Positions 2,676-46,280 of a stretch of DNA of 51,434 nt are shown piece after piece. Made by a program: the position numbers and the translations under genes. Position 1 is the first letter of the stretch; the number at the start of each line of letters is the position of its first letter. The stretch is from Nitrosomonas sp. Lineage in GTDB: Bacteria; Pseudomonadota; Gammaproteobacteria; Burkholderiales; Nitrosomonadaceae. A model generated the notes under the pieces. The model had not been told where the DNA came from. It made no database searches and worked only from the letters and a program-made list of their open reading frames with translations. Location of the stretch: positions 1 to 51,434 of the forward strand of contig JAGRFM010000057.1 in NCBI GenBank assembly GCA_020446045.1, in the 5' to 3' direction.

Positions 2676-3302
2676 TTAATTACGGGATGGATAAATACCC
2701 TGAAGGGCGATAATCCAGTTCATGGCAATAAACGGTGACCGGTTCTCATGACTTTGACCGCCGCCAAAAGAACTTACCGTTACCGATGCCGGGTTCATGT
2801 CGACATCCGGGGCGGCGCTGGAATAAATATTCTGGCGACTGAGGACTGCCCAAGTATTATTGCCTGGGTCGGTACTGTTTCCGGCTCCGCTTTGTGCATG
2901 GATTGTAGCGGTGGGTGTGATGACCGGCAATTCTGCCGGTGTCAATGTCACAGTTTCAACGCCTCCTTTTTGGCCGATCGGATAATTGGATAAACCGGGG
3001 CCATGTCCCGCACCAATCACAGAGCGTCCCCTGGTATCAGGTAAAGCAAATGTGGTTCTCCCATCTCCCCCGTAAGTGGTGCCGAGTATGGAGAATAATG
3101 CCGTATTTTCAGAGATAGGCAGTATTTGACCATTTGCCAGCGCCCATCCACGAGGCGCAAAATTCCCGGCAAATACACACATGCCACCTATCATGGGACT
3201 ATCGCCACTACAAGCATAAACGTTGCTGCTGGCTAGAATCCCGGAAAATAATGAAGTTGCAAGTGCCACGGATAAAGCAGTACGACGGACAGGATAACCC
3301 AT
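2676..3302 (-). CDS. Exported phage tail-collar domain protein (microcystin-dependent-protein-like)
   Basis: The start is set at 3302 because AAGGAG lies 7 bases upstream; a longer frame to 3347 lacks such a site. The 208-residue product has a clear signal peptide (residues 1-30, ending near SSNVYA). A tail-collar fold follows, with the hallmark runs FAGNFAPRGWALANGQ, LFSILGTTYGGDGRTTFALP and, at the end, MNWIIALQGIYPS. In phages this fold forms short-tail fibre collars. Free-standing bacterial copies are usually cytoplasmic and come in sets of two or three, whereas this one is single and secreted. It sits 95 bases downstream of a PEP-CTERM gene on the same strand and may be co-transcribed with it. 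Function unknown. Confidence 0.85.
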   Translation of the reverse strand: MGYPVRRTALSVALATSLFSGILASSNVYACSGDSPMIGGMCVFAGNFAPRGWALANGQILPISENTALFSILGTTYGGDGRTTFALPDTRGRSVIGAGHGPGLSNYPIGQKGGVETVTLTPAELPVITPTATIHAQSGAGNSTDPGNNTWAVLSRQNIYSSAAPDVDMNPASVTVSSFGGGQSHENRSPFIAMNWIIALQGIYPSRN

Positions 3303-3396
3303 AATCGCTCCTTTTAGTTGTTCACAAAAATGGTTCAGAGCGATCATAGGATATTTACGGCCATCTTTTACAAGCCATGCCTATACGATATGATGC

Positions 3397-4299
3397 TCAG
3401 CCCCATATTCTGCGCCCAAATAACATTCCAAGCAACCCGAACCCCATCAATGCGAGCAATCCCGGTTCCGCCACTTGATTTGTAGGTATCGTTGCATCAA
3501 ATGATACGATGGCATCAAAAGAACCAGAGTAACTGGATCCGGAAGCATATGCACCTCCTTCAATACTATGAAAGACGTGAAAGTCCAGTAACTCGCCGGG
3601 GGTCAATGTCAAAATAAGCTGGTGAATGCCTGTATCATCGAGTGTGCCTCCAAAAGCACCCGTTGAATTGCCATTGACTGCATTGCCAAAAAGTGTGTCG
3701 GATGTCAGATCGGAAAAGAACAATTCGGTGCCGGAGCCGTCAAAAAGCTGAAATTCTGAGGCGGCAAAAGCATCGGGTCCGCTGGAGTGGACGTGATTAT
3801 CATAATCCAGCGAGATGGTCACTTGTATGCTATCGGTTGCAGACAGATTCTGAATATTGAAAAACAGATCATAAAAATTGCCATTGTTTGTTGCTGCTCC
3901 AGAAGTGCCGGAGAAACTTCCGCTGATATCCGAATGGATTTCCCATCCATCTCCAACATCGGTTAACGTGCCGCTGAGTGGGTTTGAACCCGAAGTGATC
4001 GAAATATCATTAATCGTTGTCGTACTCGATGCGCCACCTATTGTTTGAACGAGGCTGCCGGTATGTGTGGCGTTGCCGGTAGCCGGGCTGGAATCATCTT
4101 CATCAAAACTGAGAAAATCATCCGCAGCAATATCAGTCGATACGCTGGTTGAAATTTGCAAGTCGGCTGGTAATGGCGCTGCATTAACGATTCCAGCCGT
4201 TGTTAGAAGTATGCAACCGGCTAACATGCCAAACCATCTTAACAAAACCGATTGTCTTTGTTGGTTGGTAACATGCTTATTATTCGTTTTTGTCGTCAT
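3397..4299 (-). CDS. PEP-CTERM sorting domain protein
   Basis: ATG 4299 is chosen because AGGAG lies 9 bases upstream. The 300-residue protein has a signal peptide (residues about 20-41, LLRWFGMLAGCILLTTAGIV). A Ser/Thr/Asp-rich beta-strand domain without enzyme motifs follows. The C-terminus is a sorting signal: AEPG, then the hydrophobic span LLALMGFGLLGMLFG, then RRIWG. Exosortase would cleave at this signal and place the protein in the surface or exopolysaccharide layer. The usual PEP triplet is AEP here, within the tolerated range. The gene has an unusual promoter region: a sigma-54 site, a Fur-like box and an AT-rich upstream motif, listed separately. Confidence 0.88.
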   Translation of the reverse strand: MTTKTNNKHVTNQQRQSVLLRWFGMLAGCILLTTAGIVNAAPLPADLQISTSVSTDIAADDFLSFDEDDSSPATGNATHTGSLVQTIGGASSTTTINDISITSGSNPLSGTLTDVGDGWEIHSDISGSFSGTSGAATNNGNFYDLFFNIQNLSATDSIQVTISLDYDNHVHSSGPDAFAASEFQLFDGSGTELFFSDLTSDTLFGNAVNGNSTGAFGGTLDDTGIHQLILTLTPGELLDFHVFHSIEGGAYASGSSYSGSFDAIVSFDATIPTNQVAEPGLLALMGFGLLGMLFGRRIWG

Positions 4300-4343
4300 A
4301 TTTATACTCCTAAAAAATCTCTCAATACTGATTGGTAGCAAAA

Positions 4344-4361
4344 GATAATGATAATTATCAA
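4344..4361. promoter_or_regulatory. Fur-like box upstream of the PEP-CTERM gene
   Basis: GATAATGATAATTATCAA closely follows the Fur consensus of three GATAAT-type hexamers. It lies 45-62 bases upstream of the start codon at 4299. It overlaps the transcription start (about 4360) predicted from the neighbouring sigma-54 site, a good place for a repressor. Short AT-rich palindromes arise by chance, so this is a prediction. Confidence 0.5.
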
Positions 4362-4370
4362 TATAAATAA

Positions 4371-4386
4371 AGCAAGATCTATGCCT
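4371..4386 (-). promoter_or_regulatory. Predicted sigma-54 (-24/-12) promoter
   Basis: On the minus strand AGGCATAGATCTTGCT matches TGGCACGNNNNTTGCW, with invariant GG and GC separated by exactly 10 bases and an intact TTGCT. The predicted start is about 4360, some 60 bases before the PEP-CTERM start codon. PEP-CTERM genes in related bacteria are known to depend on RpoN with the PrsK/PrsR two-component system, which fits. Confidence 0.6.
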
Positions 4387-4459
4387 GTTGTTTCAATTCA
4401 TTGATTATTATAGGATTTTAGAAATCAAAGGAACTGATTGGCTGGCTATATGTTTGATG

Positions 4460-4475
4460 TGTAAAAATTTCTGAC
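4460..4475 (-). promoter_or_regulatory. AT-rich motif, candidate activator site for sigma-54 promoter
   Basis: Read on the minus strand this is GTCAGAAATTTTTACA. It agrees at 12 of 16 positions with GTCGAAATATTTTACA, found at 39446-39461 near another PEP-CTERM gene. It lies about 100-115 bases upstream of the predicted start, a usual distance for an enhancer-binding activator. The activator (PrsR-like) is an inference. Confidence 0.4.
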
Positions 4476-4647
4476 TATATCAGATTGACAAAGTACTGAT
4501 TTTATCTTTTGTATGAACTGATGAAAATGACTGACAGATTACATTCCTGCAGCATGTTTGTCGAATTATAATTTAAAATTTACCAACGAGTGGAATATGC
4601 CGTTTTCTTCAGAATATGTTTATGGATGTACCTTTTGTGGGCGCGAT

Positions 4648-5157
4648 ATGAAGAAAGTAATTAATATTCTGGCTGTTCTAAGTATGGTATGGATTTTTTT
4701 CTCGATTTTAGAAAAAGCTGATTCATCACCAGCGTATACAGGGGGTGAAACGACTTTAAATTCCTATGTAACAGCAACAGGGCGCACGGTTTCATTAAAT
4801 GAATTTCATGGCAGCTATTTGTGGGTGGATTATGCGGCGGAATGGTGTGGTTACTGCGTTTCACAAACACATACAATCAAGTCTCTGGAGAAACGTTTTG
4901 GAGATAACCTGCTGTTTATTACGGTGGTGACGGGTACCGGCAAAATCATGGAATCACCCACGGCGGATACGGCCCGGCAATGGGCTGATCGCTTTGATCT
5001 GGACCCTGAGCATGTATTGGCCCGTTTTTTTACCGATACGTTGCCTCATCATGTGCTGTATTCTCCACAAGGTAAAGAGCTGTTCCGGGGCAGCGGGCTT
5101 TTCAGCGCCGAAAAAATTGAAGCTATAATTGAGACAAAAACGGGACTGGTGAATTAA
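4648..5157 (+). CDS. Thioredoxin-fold protein, membrane-anchored or exported
   Basis: ATG 4648 is chosen because the product then starts MKKVINILAVLSMVWIFFSI, a signal anchor or signal peptide; the open frame runs back to a TTG at 4558 without a ribosome site. The 169-residue protein has a thioredoxin fold. The redox motif is WCGYC, within VDYAAEWCGYCVSQ at about residues 64-77, and the family cis-Pro region appears as TLPHHVLYSP. It should act as a periplasmic thiol-disulfide reductase or oxidase. It lies between PEP-CTERM system genes, but no partner is evident. The divergent PEP-CTERM gene shares the 350-base upstream region. Confidence 0.8.
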   Translation: MKKVINILAVLSMVWIFFSILEKADSSPAYTGGETTLNSYVTATGRTVSLNEFHGSYLWVDYAAEWCGYCVSQTHTIKSLEKRFGDNLLFITVVTGTGKIMESPTADTARQWADRFDLDPEHVLARFFTDTLPHHVLYSPQGKELFRGSGLFSAEKIEAIIETKTGLVN

Positions 5158-5318: not shown

Positions 5319-5675
5319 ATGAGAAAAATGACCCAATTGATTCTGATGTTGTTTGTCCTGATGTTTGCATCGTCGCATGCGATGGCTACGGAGCGTTATG
5401 GCTATAACTATATCAGCGCATCCAGCGAGAAACTGCTGATTGGTTTGGCTAATACGGCAACCGGACTTGGAGAGCTGCCGAAGAATATTATTTTGACGAC
5501 TCAGCGTGATACTATTGCTCATGGTATGACTTTTGGCGTGGTATCTGGCGTGATGCACAGTGTCGCCCGTACTGTGATAGGTGTTTTTGATGTGGTGACA
5601 TTCTGGATTCCAACGCCACCATCAGTGCAACCGACCTATGTGTGGGAAGATTTCTCGGTTGAAACATCGTATTAA
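5319..5675 (+). CDS. Exosortase-system-associated protein, TIGR04073 family
   Basis: This small exported protein (118 residues) has a signal peptide (residues 1-24, ending SSHAMA). The body carries GLANTATGLGELPKNI and later VARTVIGVFDVVTFWIP, which match my memory of the TIGR04073 family, a group that co-occurs with exosortase/PEP-CTERM systems. Its molecular role is not known. AAAGGAG lies 7 bases before the ATG. A strong bidirectional terminator follows. Its presence supports a functional exosortase system elsewhere in the genome. Confidence 0.8.
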   Translation: MRKMTQLILMLFVLMFASSHAMATERYGYNYISASSEKLLIGLANTATGLGELPKNIILTTQRDTIAHGMTFGVVSGVMHSVARTVIGVFDVVTFWIPTPPSVQPTYVWEDFSVETSY

Positions 5676-17809: not shown

Positions 17810-19933
17810 ATGTCCGATGTAACCGATATTTCTGGTGATGTACCCGGAAAAGCCTCAGTTGCGCTGACAGGCAACAAAAAAATCCAGGAAAAATTACAAC
17901 GCCTTGGCATTCGTACCGAAATGGACTTGGTGCTGCATTTGCCGTTGCGTTATGAAGATGAAACGCACTTGTTTCCGATCAGCAATGCGCCGCAAGGCAA
18001 GGCCGTACAGGTCGAGGGGGTCATCGTGCATAATGAAGTATTGCTGAAACCCCGCCGCCAACTGGTTTGCCGGGTTGAGGACAGCAGTGGCATGTTGTGC
18101 ATGCGTTTTCTGAATTTTTACGGTAGCCAGATCAAAGCATATGCCGTCGGTAAGCGCGTCAGGTTGTTTGGTGAGATCCGGCATGGTTTTTTCGGTTCGG
18201 AAATGGTGCATCCGAAGTGCCGCATCATTAACCGGAACGAACCGTTGGCCGATGCGATGACGCCGGTTTATCCGGTTACAGGCGGATTGACACAGAAGAC
18301 GTTGAGCAGCTTGATTGGTCGGGTGCTGAAGTATCCCCATGACAAATCCTTGCTGGCCGAAACCGTGCCGCCTGAGATCGTTCAACAAAACCGGCTGCCC
18401 GGTTTCAGGGAAAGTGTGTTGACGTTGCATCATCCGCCGCCGGATGTGTCGGTCGTGACTTTGCAGAATCAAACGCATCCTGCCTGGCAGCGGATCAAAT
18501 TCGACGAACTACTGGCGCAGCAGTTGTCGATGCGGCTGCATTACCGCCAGCGGCGTAGCCGGAAAGCGCCGCGATTGAATTACAAAGCAGTTTTGCACGA
18601 TTTGTTCATGACGCGGCTTTCATTTAGTCTGACTGCTGCGCAGATGCGTGTGGTGAAGGAAATCAGCGGCGATCTGGGTTCGAATCATCCCATGCAACGC
18701 TTGTTGCAAGGTGATGTCGGTAGCGGCAAGACGATTGTGGCGGCACTTGCCGCATTACAGGCTATCGATAATGGTTATCAGGCCGCCATCATGGCGCCGA
18801 CCGAGATTCTAGCCGAACAGCATTATCAGAAGTTATCCGCCTGGTTCGAACCACTCGGTATTCAGGTCGCCTGGTTGTCCGGCAGTCAGAAGAAAAAAGA
18901 ACGGCAAACCGTTTTGACTGTTATTGAGTCGGGTGAGACCATGCTTGCTGTCGGTACGCATGCATTATTTCAGGATCAGGTAAATTTTCATCAGCTGGGG
19001 CTCGCGATTATCGACGAGCAGCACCGCTTTGGCGTGCATCAGCGTCTGGCATTGCGGATGAAAGGAATGAAGGGTATGAAAGGCGTGCAGGTACCCGATA
19101 AATCAGAACAGGTGCCGCACCAACTGATGATGAGTGCTACACCGATACCACGCACCTTGTCGATGAGCTATTTCGCTGACCTGGATGTTTCCGTGATTGA
19201 CGAATTACCGCCCGGCAGGTCGCCGGTGGTGACCAAATTATTGTCCGATAGCCGCCGTGATGAAGTCATTGACCGTATTCAACAGGCCTGCAGGAAGGGC
19301 AAACAGGTGTACTGGGTGTGTCCGTTGATTGAAGAATCGGAAACATTGCAATTGCAAACGGCAATGGATACTTATGAAACGCTATGCAGTACATTTGCCG
19401 ATTTACATGTCGGTCTGGTGCACGGGCGTCTGTCGGCGCAGGAAAAGACCGATATCATGGCGCAGTTTAAACAGGGTGAAGTTCAGCTTTTAGTGGCAAC
19501 CACCGTGATTGAAGTTGGTGTCGATGTGCCGAATGCCTCGTTGATGGTGATTGAGAATGCGGAACGCATGGGACTGTCGCAGTTGCATCAGTTGCGTGGG
19601 CGTGTGGGGCGCGGCTCGGATGCAAGTGTATGTATTTTAATGTATCAGAAACCATTGTCAGAAATTGCCCGTAAACGCCTGAAAATCATTTTCGAACACA
19701 GCGACGGTTTTGAAATTGCGCGGCAGGATTTGCATTTGCGTGGTCCCGGTGAGTTTCTCGGTGCACGCCAGAGCGGCGTTCCGATGCTGCGTTTTGCCGA
19801 TCTCGAATTGGATGGCGGATTGCTCACGGCGGCACAGGCCGCCGCCGATGAAATGCTTAATCACTATCCCGACCAGACGCAACACCATATCAAACGATGG
19901 CTGGGCGATAAAACCGAGTACCTGCGCGTTTGA
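17810..19933 (+). CDS. recG: ATP-dependent DNA helicase RecG
   Basis: RecG remodels stalled forks and branched DNA. The 707-residue product has an N-terminal wedge/OB region (about residues 1-250, with VQVEGVIVHNEV). Superfamily 2 helicase motifs follow: RLLQGDVGSGKT (Walker A, about 305), AIMAPTEILAEQHYQKL, IIDEQHRFGVHQR (motif II as DEQH), MMSATPIPRTLSMSYF, LVATTVIEVGVDVPNA and QLRGRVGRG. The short repeat KGMKGMKGV near residue 425 is unusual and may come from slippage, but it keeps the frame. Confidence 0.98.
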   Translation: MSDVTDISGDVPGKASVALTGNKKIQEKLQRLGIRTEMDLVLHLPLRYEDETHLFPISNAPQGKAVQVEGVIVHNEVLLKPRRQLVCRVEDSSGMLCMRFLNFYGSQIKAYAVGKRVRLFGEIRHGFFGSEMVHPKCRIINRNEPLADAMTPVYPVTGGLTQKTLSSLIGRVLKYPHDKSLLAETVPPEIVQQNRLPGFRESVLTLHHPPPDVSVVTLQNQTHPAWQRIKFDELLAQQLSMRLHYRQRRSRKAPRLNYKAVLHDLFMTRLSFSLTAAQMRVVKEISGDLGSNHPMQRLLQGDVGSGKTIVAALAALQAIDNGYQAAIMAPTEILAEQHYQKLSAWFEPLGIQVAWLSGSQKKKERQTVLTVIESGETMLAVGTHALFQDQVNFHQLGLAIIDEQHRFGVHQRLALRMKGMKGMKGVQVPDKSEQVPHQLMMSATPIPRTLSMSYFADLDVSVIDELPPGRSPVVTKLLSDSRRDEVIDRIQQACRKGKQVYWVCPLIEESETLQLQTAMDTYETLCSTFADLHVGLVHGRLSAQEKTDIMAQFKQGEVQLLVATTVIEVGVDVPNASLMVIENAERMGLSQLHQLRGRVGRGSDASVCILMYQKPLSEIARKRLKIIFEHSDGFEIARQDLHLRGPGEFLGARQSGVPMLRFADLELDGGLLTAAQAAADEMLNHYPDQTQHHIKRWLGDKTEYLRV

Positions 19934-39426: not shown

Positions 39427-39461
39427 AAAGTTATCAAGAGTGACTGTCGAAATATTTTACA
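39427..39461 (+). repeat. First copy of 35-bp PEP-CTERM-promoter motif
   Basis: AAGTTATCAAGAGTGACTGT continues into CGAAATATTTTACA. The last 31 bases match the second copy at 39920-39950 at 27 of 31 positions, and sequence after each copy is also loosely alike. No sigma-54 site follows this copy, so it is an orphan. Confidence 0.7.
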
Positions 39462-39560
39462 CATAACTTGAGATTCTTATCCGACGCGAGTGTTCAGCCA
39501 TACCTCAAGAATTCATAATTATTCAGTACGTTAGACGTAAAGTAACGTGTTGCTGGAATT

Positions 39561-40165: not shown

Positions 40166-41110
40166 ATGCCATTTAAAAAAGTTGCACCAACCTATTTTTT
40201 TCTATTTGCCATATTGATCTTTTTATTCAACAGTAAGATTGTGGCTGCGCCATTTACGCAAGGTAATGTATTTGTTTCGACTGGCGTTGGCACTGTTCTT
40301 GAATATACACCAACAGGCACGCTCGTTCAGACATTAAATGTAGGAACTAGTTTTATTACAGGATCAACTTTTGATTCTTCTGGTAATTTTTATGTCACGC
40401 GTTTCAGCAACAATCAGGTACAGAAATTTGATAATCTGGGTGTCAATCAAGGTACGTTTGGTGGTGGTTACAGTACACCCGAAAGTGTAGTCATCAACGC
40501 ATCCGGTGATGTTTTTGTTGGAAGTGTTGGTGGTGGTATCAGGCAATTCGATAGTACAGGTATTTTGCAATCATCATTTATAACCGGTACGCGTATCGAT
40601 TTTATGGATCTGGCTGCGGATCAAAAGACTATGTACTACACACAAGAAGGTGGCGAGGTACATCGGGTTGATTTAAGTACCAATACTATCCTGAGTGATT
40701 TCTCGACAGCGGTTGAGAATGCTTTTGCATTGCGGATACTGGCAAATGGTTCAGTCCTGGTTGCCGATGGTAGCGATATCGAACTCCTTGATTCTAGCGG
40801 TAATCAGATAATGACGTATGATTCTGCTGGACACAATAGCTGGTTTGGTCTGAATCTGGATCCTGACGGCACTACTTTCTGGAGTGCTGATTTTAGTGGC
40901 CATGTTTCACATTTTGATCTAGCCACCGGTGCGGTTATAGATAGCTGGGATGTGGCAGGTGTTAATGGAACTTGGGGACTGGCTATATATGGAGAAATTA
41001 CCCAAGGTGGAGGTGGCGGTGGCGGTACCGTTCCTGAACCCATTACGCTTGCTTTATTCGGAATCGGTTTGCTGGGTATGAGCATAATGAGAAGATTCCG
41101 CTCAATCTGA
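40166..41110 (+). CDS. PEP-CTERM beta-propeller (NHL/SMP-30-like) protein
   Basis: AAAAGGGGAGA precedes the ATG by about 8 bases. The 314-residue protein has a signal peptide (residues 10-29, FFLFAILIFLFNSKIVAA). A repeat domain of about six blades follows, with patterns such as GSTFDSSGNFYVTRFSNNQV, SVVINASGDVFVGSVGGGIR and LRILANGSVLVADGSDIELL, typical of NHL or SMP-30-like beta propellers. A Gly-rich linker GGGGGGTVPEP leads into the sorting span ITLALFGIGLLGMSIMRRF. Exosortase would place it at the surface or matrix; the ligand is unknown. Its promoter region carries a sigma-54 site and upstream motif. Confidence 0.9.
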   Translation: MPFKKVAPTYFFLFAILIFLFNSKIVAAPFTQGNVFVSTGVGTVLEYTPTGTLVQTLNVGTSFITGSTFDSSGNFYVTRFSNNQVQKFDNLGVNQGTFGGGYSTPESVVINASGDVFVGSVGGGIRQFDSTGILQSSFITGTRIDFMDLAADQKTMYYTQEGGEVHRVDLSTNTILSDFSTAVENAFALRILANGSVLVADGSDIELLDSSGNQIMTYDSAGHNSWFGLNLDPDGTTFWSADFSGHVSHFDLATGAVIDSWDVAGVNGTWGLAIYGEITQGGGGGGGTVPEPITLALFGIGLLGMSIMRRFRSI

Positions 41111-41798: not shown

Positions 41799-44700
41799 AT
41801 GTCTGCGGGGCCGGAATTACGATCCTATGGAAGCAATCTGACACAAACGAATAATAATGTTCATGAGCTTAGAGGGCTAATCGCGAATATCGATGACAAA
41901 ATCGATAAGGTCGAAATGGCCATTGACGCGATAGACGCCGTTCAAGAAAAAGCGGACGAATTCAGCAATACCATCAGCAAACAAAAGCTTGTGCTCAAGC
42001 TGATGGATAAGGCGGGGCCGTTAAAAGTCCTGGCTAAAGTGGCGGATAAAATACTTGATGCTGTCCAGAATGTATCCAACAAAGTCAGAGACAAGGCCAA
42101 ACAACTGGCCAAGAAAATCGACGATAGTAAGCTGGAAGAGAAGCTCGATGCGGCACAGGAAAAACTGGAGTCTTTTGATATAAAACTTGCCGGCACAGAA
42201 CAGGTACTGCTTAAAAATATCGTTGCCGTCAATCAATTGATTACCGCACTGGATAAAGCCGATGAATTTGATCCAAATGGCGATCCGGCTGCGCCTGCCG
42301 CTGCAGGCGCCGATGCACTTGTTACTCCGCCGAATGCGGTGATTTCTGCTATTAACGATACTTTCGCGGAAATCAAAGAAAAAACACAAATACTCGATGG
42401 CGCAGTACCTAGCGCAACTTTCCTTCCGGTACTGAGCGTCAGAATTGCCTTTGACGATATTTCCTCATCGCTCGGTTTCCTGCGGGGGCCGCTTAATGCT
42501 GTCTCTAAAGTACTCAAACCGATTGAAGGCGTACTGGATGCAATTGGGTTTGTGTTTAAACTGACTGTGGAGCCTGTGATCAACTACATTATGGATACGC
42601 TCGGTATTAACCGTGTGATCAATACAGTTTCCGATAAAATCAGCAAGCTGTTACCTAACCCCGGTATTTTTGACAATATTCTGGAAGATTTCGATACTGC
42701 ATTTCTTGAAATTGACCCGTTAGGACAGTTTGAAGACTATCTGGGCATATCCGACTGGCTGGATGATCTGAACCAACAGGTGGTCAATCCGGTTGGCAAT
42801 GCACAAACCGGCTCCATTGGAATTGGTACACCATTGGATGATCCGTTAACAGGTACTGGCGACCATAACCTGCTGTATGGGGGGAACGGCAATGATACGT
42901 TAATTGGTGGAAACGGCATTGATATCCTGGTAGGCAGTGCGGGTAACGATTTTCTGGATGGTGGTGGCGATGCCGATATTGCCATTTTCCGCGGCAGTTT
43001 CCTGGAATACGGTTATTCTCAGTCAGCCGATGGTGAATCCATCACATTCAACCACTTATATCCATCAGACAAAAGAGTTGTCGACGGTGTGGATGAAACC
43101 AAAGATATTGATTTATTCGTTTTTTCTGATTTTAGTCTGACGCCCTCATTACTACTAAACAGCGTGTTCAGGGCGCTCGTAGGACAAAATGTACTGGACG
43201 GCACGGAGAACAGAGATTTCCTTTTTGGCGGTTCCACCGCTATTACGATTAACGCTTTTGGTGGCAATGATATGTTGTCCGGCAGTCCTGCCGCCGATTT
43301 TCTCAATGGTGGCAATGGTGATGACATGCTCGTCTTCAGCGGTGGCGAAGACATTTTTTCCGGTGGTGCTGGCAACGATACTTGGCGGTTCCCCATTAAT
43401 AATGAGAGCGGAAACCCGACTATCGATGCCGACATGGAACGTGGCACTATCTTCGCCGGCGGTGGCAACACTACCACGCTGGATTCAATTGAAAATGCTG
43501 TTGTCGAAGATGACCGTCAGGCTTTCCTGTTTGGTGATGCCGCGGACAATCGTCTGGTTGCTTCCGCTGACCGGGATGTGCTTGATGGTCGTTCCGGTAA
43601 CGACTTGCTTGATGGTGGCCCCAGTCAGGATATTCTGATCGGCGGGCCGGGTAACGACACATTATATGGTGGTGAAGGAAATGATACGCTGGTTTCCGGT
43701 GATCAAACCATAGCAGGCGTCAGCAATTTTTATGATGGCGGTGAAGGCAACTTTGATGCCCTGACTTATGCGTCTGATCTTTTCGATGTTTTGCAGCGCG
43801 AATATATCAATGATGGCATCCGGTCAAAAGCCCGTTCCCAGGATGCATCCGGCCCGGTACGGATTTTTGCTGAAACGGGCCAGATCGAACGCATGTCTGC
43901 AGACGGCAACACTGTGATAGCTACTGATACCGCCGTGAATATCGAGCGTTTTGTCGGCTCAGACTTTAATGACACCTTATACGGTGGACCCGGTACGTAT
44001 ATCGAAATTGACGGCGGAGCTGGCAATGACACACTTTATGGACAACTTGCAGGAAGGTTTGTCGGCGGTGGCAGTGGTGATGATATTGTTTACGCTGGAA
44101 CTGGCGGTGCCAACTACGATGGTGGCGGTGGTTTTGATGTGCTCTATTTAACAGAAACACCCGATGTGCGCTGGCTGGTGCGGCTGGATGGTTCTATCGG
44201 CTCCACGCTCAGAGCATTTAATGCACTTGAAGGTGAAGAACTGGCTACACCAGAAGGCAGCTTGCAGAATGAATCCGGGCCTTCTGTCATCGCGTCAGGT
44301 AATGTAACGGATTTTGACGTTTATTTCGCGGGTGATCAAGACGATCATTTTGAATTACGTGACAAGGGAGAGATTACGGTTTATGGTGCGGGGGGTAATG
44401 ATTTCATTCGAGGCAATAATGGCGGTGACAACAATCCTTCATTTAATCTTTATGGCGAACAAGGTGATGACACCATCATCATAAAAGAAGAGGGCCTTGC
44501 TGACGGCGGTGAAGGAGATGACCGTATCGAAATCGATTCTGGTTCAAGCCAGTTTGTCCAGGCGCTGGGTCATCAAGGCAATGATTTTTTTGTTATCCGA
44601 AGTGGAGAAGTCAGAATTGAAGGTGGTGAGGATCGGGATACACTTTCAGCCAATCAAAGCAGTATTTTTGCCGGTCTTGATGTCGATCTGTTAGCCGGAA

Positions 44701-46280
44701 CCATCGATACATTCGATGGCAGTGACTGGTTTTCTGGCACAGTTACCGGTATTGAAGAACTCATCGGATCAAATGAGCATAGTGATATTCTGCTTGGCGG
44801 CCATATCGGCGAACGGTTTATCGGTGGCGGTGGTAATGATGACATTCATGGACGGGATGGGCAGGATGCGCTTTATGGCGGCCCCGGAAATGATAATCTG
44901 TTCGGTGACGATGGTGACGATTTGTTGCATGGTGGCTCAGGAAATGATGTCATCGACGGCGGTGACGGTATTGATACGGCCACCTGGGCTTTTGCCGCAC
45001 CGGGCGCCAATCAGGGTGAAGTCGAAAGTACCAGCTTCGGTCATCTTGAGGCCGACCTGGTCAGCGGTAACGCCTTTTTCAGATTATTTGCCGGTGGGCA
45101 GGAAAACAGCGTGTTGATCGGAATTGAGAACATTATCGGTGGTGACGGTGACGATACGATTCGCGGTGATGATTTTGATAACATGTTGTCTGGTGGTGCC
45201 GGGGACGACCTGCTAGAAGGGCGAGGCGGTAACGATGTACTGGTGCTTGACGGTAATGACAGCGCTAACGGCGGTGACGGTGATGACCAGTTTGTCATCG
45301 GACTGGGCAATATGGACATTGACGGTGGTGACGGTATCGATACATTGGACTTCGGCGCCTTAGGCGGCATTATACGTATAGATACGGTCGCTGGTACCTA
45401 TACCGCAGAACTTGAATTTGATCAGCCTGTCTGGAAGGATAATTCAGGCTCGGAATCAAGAATTTCGGGAGGCATACAACTTACACCGCAGGATGTGCTG
45501 GAAGCAGATGCAACTTTCTCCAATTCAACCGATGATCTGGCGCTGAATTCAATTTTCGATAATGCAACGACAGATTTGGAGATTGATTTTATTACGGAAA
45601 CTGAATTTGTATCGGGAACATTTACCAATGTCGAGCTGTTTGTTGCAGGTGCCGCTCACTTGATTGGTTCTGCTGCAGATGATCACTTTAATGGGGATGG
45701 TGGTGTAAATATATTTGAGGGATCACAGGGTGACGATACTTTTGACGGTGATGCGGATACGGATACAGTCATATTTGCCGGTCCAATTTCCAATTACTCC
45801 GTGATAAAAACAACAAACGGTTTTGAGGTTGAAGATAATATCAGTAATGACGGATTTGACACACTGATTAATATCGAACGCTTGCAATTCTCAGATATCG
45901 GTATCGCGTACGATTTGGATACCAGCGCTGGAGAAGTTGCAAAACTATTGGGTGCTGTTTTCGGGCGGGCGGCAGTTACAAATAAAAAAGCAGTGGGTAT
46001 TGGGCTGGATTTTAAAAATGATGGTATGTCATATGAAGATTTGGCTGAATTGGCTATTGCTGCGAGAGGAGCAAACACACCTCAGGAAATTGTAACGCTG
46101 CTTTGGATTAATGTTGTCGGAACTTCGCCAACAACACAGCAGGCACAAAAGTTTATAGATATTCTGAATAATAACGAAATGACAATCGGTGAATTAAGCG
46201 TATTCGCAGCTGAAACTGGCCTGAATGCAGCAAATATCAACCTGGTTGGTTTGTCCAATACGGGAATTGAGTTTATTTGA
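41799..46280 (+). CDS. Very large RTX-type calcium-binding repeat protein, type I secretion substrate
   Basis: The 1493-residue protein has no signal peptide. Residues 1-340 are helical and rich in Lys/Asp/Ala, with coiled-coil segments (KLEEKLDAAQEKLESFD). From about residue 355 to 1350 it carries many RTX nonapeptides in clusters (GGNGNDTLIGGNGIDILVG, GGPGNDTLYGGEGNDTL, GDDGDDLLHGGSGNDVIDGG), which fold into calcium-filled beta rolls. Spacer domains with VRWLVRLDGSIG or FDGSDWFSGTV lie between. The last 110 residues form a conserved C-terminal domain (AKLLGAVFGRAAVTNKKAVG ... LVGLSNTGIEFI) typical of such exported proteins. Its function may be adhesion or surface layer. GGGAGAG precedes the ATG. 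No type I exporter is in the window. Confidence 0.93.
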   Translation: MSAGPELRSYGSNLTQTNNNVHELRGLIANIDDKIDKVEMAIDAIDAVQEKADEFSNTISKQKLVLKLMDKAGPLKVLAKVADKILDAVQNVSNKVRDKAKQLAKKIDDSKLEEKLDAAQEKLESFDIKLAGTEQVLLKNIVAVNQLITALDKADEFDPNGDPAAPAAAGADALVTPPNAVISAINDTFAEIKEKTQILDGAVPSATFLPVLSVRIAFDDISSSLGFLRGPLNAVSKVLKPIEGVLDAIGFVFKLTVEPVINYIMDTLGINRVINTVSDKISKLLPNPGIFDNILEDFDTAFLEIDPLGQFEDYLGISDWLDDLNQQVVNPVGNAQTGSIGIGTPLDDPLTGTGDHNLLYGGNGNDTLIGGNGIDILVGSAGNDFLDGGGDADIAIFRGSFLEYGYSQSADGESITFNHLYPSDKRVVDGVDETKDIDLFVFSDFSLTPSLLLNSVFRALVGQNVLDGTENRDFLFGGSTAITINAFGGNDMLSGSPAADFLNGGNGDDMLVFSGGEDIFSGGAGNDTWRFPINNESGNPTIDADMERGTIFAGGGNTTTLDSIENAVVEDDRQAFLFGDAADNRLVASADRDVLDGRSGNDLLDGGPSQDILIGGPGNDTLYGGEGNDTLVSGDQTIAGVSNFYDGGEGNFDALTYASDLFDVLQREYINDGIRSKARSQDASGPVRIFAETGQIERMSADGNTVIATDTAVNIERFVGSDFNDTLYGGPGTYIEIDGGAGNDTLYGQLAGRFVGGGSGDDIVYAGTGGANYDGGGGFDVLYLTETPDVRWLVRLDGSIGSTLRAFNALEGEELATPEGSLQNESGPSVIASGNVTDFDVYFAGDQDDHFELRDKGEITVYGAGGNDFIRGNNGGDNNPSFNLYGEQGDDTIIIKEEGLADGGEGDDRIEIDSGSSQFVQALGHQGNDFFVIRSGEVRIEGGEDRDTLSANQSSIFAGLDVDLLAGTIDTFDGSDWFSGTVTGIEELIGSNEHSDILLGGHIGERFIGGGGNDDIHGRDGQDALYGGPGNDNLFGDDGDDLLHGGSGNDVIDGGDGIDTATWAFAAPGANQGEVESTSFGHLEADLVSGNAFFRLFAGGQENSVLIGIENIIGGDGDDTIRGDDFDNMLSGGAGDDLLEGRGGNDVLVLDGNDSANGGDGDDQFVIGLGNMDIDGGDGIDTLDFGALGGIIRIDTVAGTYTAELEFDQPVWKDNSGSESRISGGIQLTPQDVLEADATFSNSTDDLALNSIFDNATTDLEIDFITETEFVSGTFTNVELFVAGAAHLIGSAADDHFNGDGGVNIFEGSQGDDTFDGDADTDTVIFAGPISNYSVIKTTNGFEVEDNISNDGFDTLINIERLQFSDIGIAYDLDTSAGEVAKLLGAVFGRAAVTNKKAVGIGLDFKNDGMSYEDLAELAIAARGANTPQEIVTLLWINVVGTSPTTQQAQKFIDILNNNEMTIGELSVFAAETGLNAANINLVGLSNTGIEFI

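What the first reader, a model, noticed from the sequence alone, without database searches (positions are those of the whole stretch)
4299..4475. Layered promoter of a PEP-CTERM gene: sigma-54 site, upstream motif and a Fur-like box on the start site
The minus-strand site AGGCATAGATCTTGCT has the exact GG-N10-GC spacing of sigma-54. Its predicted start (about 4360) falls in GATAATGATAATTATCAA, a near-consensus Fur box, and an AT-rich motif lies 100-115 bases upstream where an enhancer-binding activator would sit. RpoN/PrsK-PrsR control of PEP-CTERM genes is known in relatives; an added iron-repression layer on a matrix protein would be new to me.
Basis: partly seen in the sequence, partly recalled or inferred. 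Interest (0 to 1): 0.72.

Follow-up and report, generated by a model that had tools for sequence, protein, structure and literature searches.

The report
PEP-CTERM promoter with Fur-like site
A Nitrosomonas surface-protein gene carries the known PEP-CTERM enhancer and sigma-54 promoter, and its start site also holds a sequence closely resembling the genus's iron-repressor operator, which may or may not work.

Summary
The window lies in a Nitrosomonas genome. The minus-strand site 4386-4371 is a sigma-54 promoter. The "AT-rich motif" 4475-4459 is motif 1 of the PEP-CTERM regulon of Haft et al. 2006, the presumed PrsR enhancer. Matrices built without this gene rank both among the top three sites of the 51-kb window. 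Nine of 18 PEP-CTERM hits in the genome carry the pair, at spacings that follow the DNA helix. IHF-like sites lie between them in 23 of 45 such promoters, here included. That part is an ordinary member of a known regulon.

The Fur-like box (4344-4362) covers the predicted start (4360). It matches the Fur consensus at 15 of 19 positions and aligns 22/23 with the tonB-operon operator of the genus, but with 3 extra bases at the dyad centre. Shuffles and background rarely reach this. However, none of the 44 other promoters has it, four orthologues lack box, enhancer and sigma-54 site, and the altered spacing is hardly above background. Fur control is possible and testable, but not shown: about 0.4.

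The parts
4459..4475 (-). Motif 1 of the PEP-CTERM regulon (presumed PrsR enhancer), GTCAGAAATTTTTACAC
   Evidence: 18.1 bits with a matrix from 38 other promoters; third-best in the window; fits the description in PMC1569441 (passages)
4394..4406 (-). IHF-like site AATCAATGAATTG (9 of 9 to the recalled consensus WATCAAN4TTR)
   Evidence: 23 of 45 promoters have 8 of 9 or better, shuffles mean 9.3, maximum 18 in 200
4371..4386 (-). Sigma-54 promoter AGGCATAGATCTTGCT, GG-N10-GC
   Evidence: 21.5 bits, second-best in the window
4344..4362 (+). Fur-operator-like box GATAATGATAATTATCAAT covering the predicted start at about 4360
   Evidence: 15/19 to the consensus; 22/23 to the genus tonB operator with a 3-base insertion
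3397..4299 (-). Protein of 300 aa with a signal-like N terminus and a PEP-CTERM-like tail (VAEPG), beta-rich in a low-confidence model
2676..3347 (-). Collar-domain protein with a signal-like start, next gene on the same strand; a like gene follows in relatives (by eye)
   Evidence: PF07484 91.9 bits; L128 and L129
1609..2595 (-). Repeat protein, Sel1-like by eye, third gene of the cluster
   Evidence: 68.1 bits to AlgK, far below its cut-off of 700; like genes in L128 and L129 by eye

Best explanation
This is an enhancer-dependent sigma-54 promoter of the PEP-CTERM (Prs) regulon. Phosphorylated PrsR would bind motif 1 about 107 bases upstream. IHF would bend the spacer. PrsR would then remodel sigma-54 polymerase at the -24/-12 site, so that transcription starts at about 4360 and runs through the PEP-CTERM-like gene and probably the Collar and Sel1-like genes. 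The motif anatomy is shown; the bound proteins, the start and the operon are inferred. On the start site sits a sequence derived from, or convergent with, the genus's tonB-operon Fur operator. Fur-Fe may weakly repress there by blocking melting or escape of the polymerase; I give that step about 0.4. The confidence below is for the sigma-54/PrsR core.
For: Matrices without this gene rank its enhancer third and its sigma-54 site second in the window. Nine of 18 PEP-CTERM hits in the genome (15 of the 18 over the cut-off) carry the pair. In the genus, 54 strict pairs were found against 5 for the reversed pattern, in 35 of 85 genomes; 15 of the 53 that I read failed a motif filter and are probably chance. 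The nine own-genome spacings keep helical phase, P 0.001 at 10.5 and 0.009 at 10.0 bases. PrsR scores 736 bits against a cut-off of 502.6. RpoN, two exosortases and two Fur-family proteins are present. The spacer of 72 lies within the published 32-92. pepA of Aquincola was shown to depend on rpoN1 (PMC9850573, passages). Fur resemblance: 0 of 3000 shuffles and 0 of 3521 background chunks reach the alignment score.
Against: Motif 1 here is weaker than nearly all members (18.1 bits; 37 of 38 members score 20.1-29.4 and one 8.1), with A for the usual T at its second position and A for G at its sixth. Four orthologues lack the whole arrangement. No start site has been mapped. prsK was not searched, and no open frame of 150 aa or more lies upstream of prsR in L049. 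The Fur dyad has spacing 4 instead of 1; spacing 4 makes 17 of 150 listed half-site pairs, against 56 for spacing 1 and 5-14 for the others.
Confidence: 0.85

Rival explanations
1. One reading: Fur-Fe binds 4344-4362 and represses the PrsR/sigma-54 promoter, so that the surface protein is made only when PrsK-PrsR is active and iron is scarce.
For: Box position on the predicted start; 22/23 alignment to the tonB operator; exact half-sites TTGATAAT and ATTATC within 8 bases, one of three such places found in the genome, another being the tonB operator; Fur-family proteins present.
Against: Three extra bases in the dyad; unique among 45 promoters; missing in four orthologues; no expression data. 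The six PEP-CTERM papers listed with 'ferric uptake regulator' or 'iron limitation' do not show such a case in their listings; one of the six was opened, as passages.
Confidence: 0.38
2. The Fur-like box is a chance pattern in an AT-rich start region and does nothing.
For: Uniqueness and lack of conservation; spacing 4 is only slightly above the other off-spacings in the genus; another 15/19 match lies inside an open frame of the window; the finding was picked out of many possible motifs.
Against: Only 17 of 5000 local shuffles reach 15/19; 0 of 3000 reach the tonB-operator alignment.
Confidence: 0.42
3. The palindrome TTGAT-AATT-ATCAT is a site for an FNR/CRP-type regulator rather than Fur.
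For: 9 of 10 to the recalled FNR consensus TTGATN4ATCAA.
Against: 64 of 5000 local shuffles do as well, and some promoter of 45 does in 28% of 300 shuffle rounds. No search for FNR in the genome was made.
Confidence: 0.1
4. A Zur-type Fur homologue binds it, as proposed for zinc-related PEP-CTERM zepA genes of other bacteria.
For: A second Fur-family protein (53.7 bits) stands before a TonB receptor on C177; PMC10957091 (passages) reports Zur-like sites before zepA genes.
Against: In the C177 stretch the only intergenic match of 13/19 or better lies at 17855, not before the Fur-family or receptor gene. The protein was not compared with ZepA; by eye it lacks the H-X2-9-H-F/Y-H motif given in that paper.
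Confidence: 0.07

Closest known systems
PEP-CTERM/Prs regulon promoters (Haft et al. 2006, PMC1569441, passages read)
   Same: 17-nt motif 1 ending in TTTACA, spacer, -24/-12 sigma-54 motif 2, PEP-CTERM gene, PrsR in the genome
   Different: A Fur-operator-like box lies on the start site; the terms IHF and integration host factor do not occur in that paper's main text
pepA of Aquincola tertiaricarbonis (PMC9850573, passages read)
   Same: rpoN1-dependent PEP-CTERM gene with a mapped start, a -24/-12 promoter and an upstream enhancer sequence
   Different: No Fur site appears in the passages read, which were not searched for Fur
Operator of the tonB-exbB-exbD operon in Nitrosomonas (a Fur operator by inference)
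   Same: 22 of 23 aligned bases, including flanks outside the consensus
   Different: Three extra bases at the dyad centre; sits at a sigma-54 start
BosR at the RpoN-dependent rpoS promoter of Borrelia (PMC3037356, passages read)
   Same: A Fur-family protein binding at a sigma-54 promoter
   Different: BosR activates and binds a direct repeat, not a Fur box

Membership tests
PEP-CTERM/Prs sigma-54 regulon | Motif 1 with TTTACA at its 3' end | tested here: met
   18.1 bits, third-best in the window
PEP-CTERM/Prs sigma-54 regulon | -24/-12 motif 2 after a spacer of 32-92 | tested here: met
   21.5 bits; spacer 72 by my measure, which may differ by a base or two from the paper's
PEP-CTERM/Prs sigma-54 regulon | PrsR and RpoN in the genome | tested here: met
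PEP-CTERM/Prs sigma-54 regulon | PrsK in the genome | not tested
PEP-CTERM/Prs sigma-54 regulon | Transcript depends on rpoN and prsR | not testable with these tools
   needs mutants
PEP-CTERM protein (TIGR02595 / PF07589) | Score over the curated cut-off | tested here: not met
   14.7 against 16; 17.5 against 20.7; the closest orthologue reads IPEPG
Fur operator | 7-1-7 dyad TGATAAT-N-ATTATCA | tested here: inconclusive
   12 of 14 bases in register; exact half-sites only at spacing 4
Fur operator | Conserved before orthologues | tested here: not met
   best 10 to 12 of 19 in four orthologues, within 330 bases upstream
Fur operator | Binds Fur and responds to iron | not testable with these tools
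   needs binding and expression assays

The most novel reading that the evidence does not exclude
A single Nitrosomonas gene cluster has combined a Prs-type sigma-54 promoter with a widened copy of the tonB Fur operator on its start site, making an AND gate in which a surface-matrix protein is made only on the PrsK-PrsR signal and under iron scarcity, with Fur working through a 7-4-7 dyad.
Probability: 0.3. Interest if true: 0.6.

Novelty: new member of a known kind. Interest (0 to 1): 0.38.

Why it matters
If Fur does act here, it would join iron status to the PrsK-PrsR/exosortase matrix programme in an ammonia oxidiser, and it would test whether Fur can repress a sigma-54 promoter from the start site through a widened dyad. 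If not, the site remains a clear example of a known regulon, with two added regularities (helical phasing of the enhancer and an IHF-like site).

Tried and rejected
Sigma-70 promoter: the scan of 4250-4700 gave one site (minus 4527-4499) against 3.0 expected by chance, not at 4360. By eye, orthologues L045 and L047 show TTGCAY-N17-TATAAT before the gene; this was not scored.

Fur boxes before TonB-receptor genes: none scored above 13/19 in the 14 loci, so the tonB operon was used as reference instead.

C118:1516 looked like a Fur box but reads as a long hairpin of terminator-like shape (by eye).

Composite promoters: one search gave 54 strict hits; 53 were read (one place in G070 was not fetched). 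A heuristic motif filter dropped 15 and kept 38. Seven own-genome promoters that the strict pattern misses were added, giving 45. The dropped 15 exceed the 5 of the reversed-pattern control, so that control understates chance hits; four of them are one orthologous coding site. One of the 38 scores only 8.1 bits and may be false.

The first scan of genome contigs with the single protein found nothing; the alignment scan found four relatives. Viral contigs gave nothing.

Structure: low confidence (mean pLDDT 57.5), beta-rich at about 112-270; the PDB matches (best Bd1399, TM 0.33 by query) were not used.

Full report
What the window is. It is contig C204 of a genome of 3.57 Mb in 242 contigs. 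Four relatives of the gene found in named records are all Nitrosomonas. Their contig lengths equal those of four genomes of the window's own genus group, so the organism is a Nitrosomonas. The gene runs minus 4299-3397. It encodes 300 residues with a signal-like N terminus, a beta-rich part (low confidence) and a PEP-CTERM-like tail. The tail scores below the curated cut-offs, but the aligned tails of four relatives carry EP at the same place and the closest reads IPEPG.

The core promoter. The genome has 18 TIGR02595 hits at E up to 1, 15 of them over the cut-off. Good sigma-54-like sites stood out before nine, and by eye the same nine carry a shared motif further upstream, TGTCG-N4-TTTTTACAC in outline. 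This is motif 1 plus motif 2 of Haft et al. 2006: a 17-nt motif ending in TTTACA, a spacer of mean 62.8 (32-92) and a -24/-12 site, found before 99 of 167 proteobacterial PEP-CTERM genes (PMC1569441, passages). A strict pair pattern gave 54 hits in 35 of 85 genomes of the genus, against 5 for the reversed pattern. Of 53 read, 38 passed a motif filter and 15 did not. Matrices from those 38, which do not include this gene, rank its enhancer third and its sigma-54 site second in the window. The sites above are the second composite promoter (39933/40045) and an orphan enhancer at 39444; the next score 10.2 and 14.5 bits. With these matrices 9 of 18 own PEP-CTERM hits have the pair; two of the nine (L007, L009, read as L070 and L068) were also among the sequences that made the matrices.

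Two regularities. First, the nine spacers are 61, 62, 63, 72, 73, 74, 81, 94 and 95. They keep helical phase: P 0.001 at 10.5, 0.0015 at 11.0 and 0.009 at 10.0 bases; without this gene 0.003 at 10.5. This gene, at 72, is about one turn longer than the usual 61-63 (30 of 38 genus promoters), though the search pattern itself stopped just short of 72. Second, 23 of 45 promoters have an IHF-like site of 8 of 9 or better in the spacer, against a mean of 9.3 and a maximum of 18 in 200 rounds of shuffles. This gene has 9 of 9. The IHF consensus is recalled. The promoters come from related genomes, so the counts are not independent.

The machinery. PrsR is over the family cut-off (736 against 502.6 bits). 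RpoN, two exosortases and two Fur-family proteins are present. PrsK was not searched.

The Fur-like box. The 19-mer has 15 of 19 matches to GATAATGATAATCATTATC; one other place in the window, inside an open frame, also has 15. In the genome the pattern at up to 3 mismatches gives 25 hits against 4 for the reversed pattern; some overlap and several lie inside open frames. In its own region 17 of 5000 shuffles do as well. Among 45 promoters it is the only one above 13, and any of 45 reaches 15 in 8 of 300 shuffle rounds. To get an operator of this genus, the tonB-exbB-exbD operon was used. All 85 genomes have a match to the TonB-like protein; 30 loci were fetched. Of these 28 hold GTTATTGATAATTATTATCGTTTGC or a near copy somewhere in the locus, 26 of them within 420 bases upstream of the gene. 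Taking it as a Fur operator is inference from the gene and the consensus. The window aligns with it over 23 bases with one mismatch and three inserted bases at the dyad centre; no shuffle of 3000 reached that score. Among 3521 chunks from 106 loci not chosen for Fur-like sequence none reached it either. The best of them, 31, is the box on C51 beside a TonB receptor, with a bacterioferritin-like gene (by eye) further on. When loci fetched by the half-site pattern were left in, 28 chunks of 5135 reached it, from 14 loci picked by that pattern and holding the tonB-type operator. I chose this comparison after seeing the site, so the figures overstate the case somewhat.

Against Fur. The inserted bases change the half-site spacing from 1 to 4. 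Of 150 listed genus matches with exact half-sites, 56 have spacing 1, 17 have spacing 4 and the others 5 to 14 each, so spacing 4 is hardly above background; the tool cut the list. In register with spacing 1 the site has 12 of 14 bases. None of the 44 other promoters has a comparable box. The same palindrome reads as an FNR-type site at 9 of 10, with weaker statistics.

Evolution. Five of 84 other genomes have a match; four are clear orthologues at 54-63% identity. None of the four has the enhancer, the sigma-54 site or the box before the gene. In the two relatives whose neighbourhood I read in full, Collar-like and Sel1-like genes follow as here, by eye, while the gene upstream differs. So the cluster seems to have met a new upstream region in this lineage; that is inference.

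Literature. Searches of the held library: PEP-CTERM with PrsR and RpoN (4 papers), with sigma-54, upstream, motif and exosortase (1), with ferric uptake regulator (4), with iron limitation (2), Nitrosomonas with PEP-CTERM and exosortase (3), and Fur with sigma-54 terms (16, of which 10 listed). None of the listings shows Fur control of a Prs promoter. Of these papers only PMC1569441, PMC9850573, PMC10957091 and PMC3037356 were opened, as passages. A Fur-family activator at a sigma-54 promoter is known in Borrelia (PMC3037356). N. europaea has three Fur homologues, one of which complements an E. coli fur mutant (PMC3050691, passages).

Verdict. The promoter is a good but ordinary member of the Prs/sigma-54 regulon. 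The Fur layer is a real resemblance of uncertain function, and a single binding assay would settle whether Fur binds.

Noticed in passing
window 39444-39462, + strand: An orphan copy of motif 1 (28.7 bits) about 490 bases upstream of the second enhancer (39933) of the PEP-CTERM gene 40166-41110, with no sigma-54 site at the usual distance.
   Followed up: partly
L083, L106, L109, L116; window 41799-46280: In relatives a composite promoter with a near-perfect palindromic motif 1 precedes a gene beginning MSAGPELR; the window's copy of that gene shows no such pair in the 420 bases upstream.
   Followed up: partly
L074/L112 (own genome C226), L104, L110, L111: Composite promoters also stand before genes whose products, as far as read, look like lytic transglycosylases by eye and not like PEP-CTERM proteins, so the regulon seems wider than PEP-CTERM proteins.
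   Followed up: no
window 5319-5675: A TIGR04073 exosortase-system-associated protein (88.3 bits) lies close by, after a weakly thioredoxin-like gene (4558-5157, below cut-offs).
   Followed up: no
window 2676-3347: A protein with a phage tail Collar domain and a signal-like start follows the PEP-CTERM-like gene here and, by eye, in relatives.
   Followed up: partly
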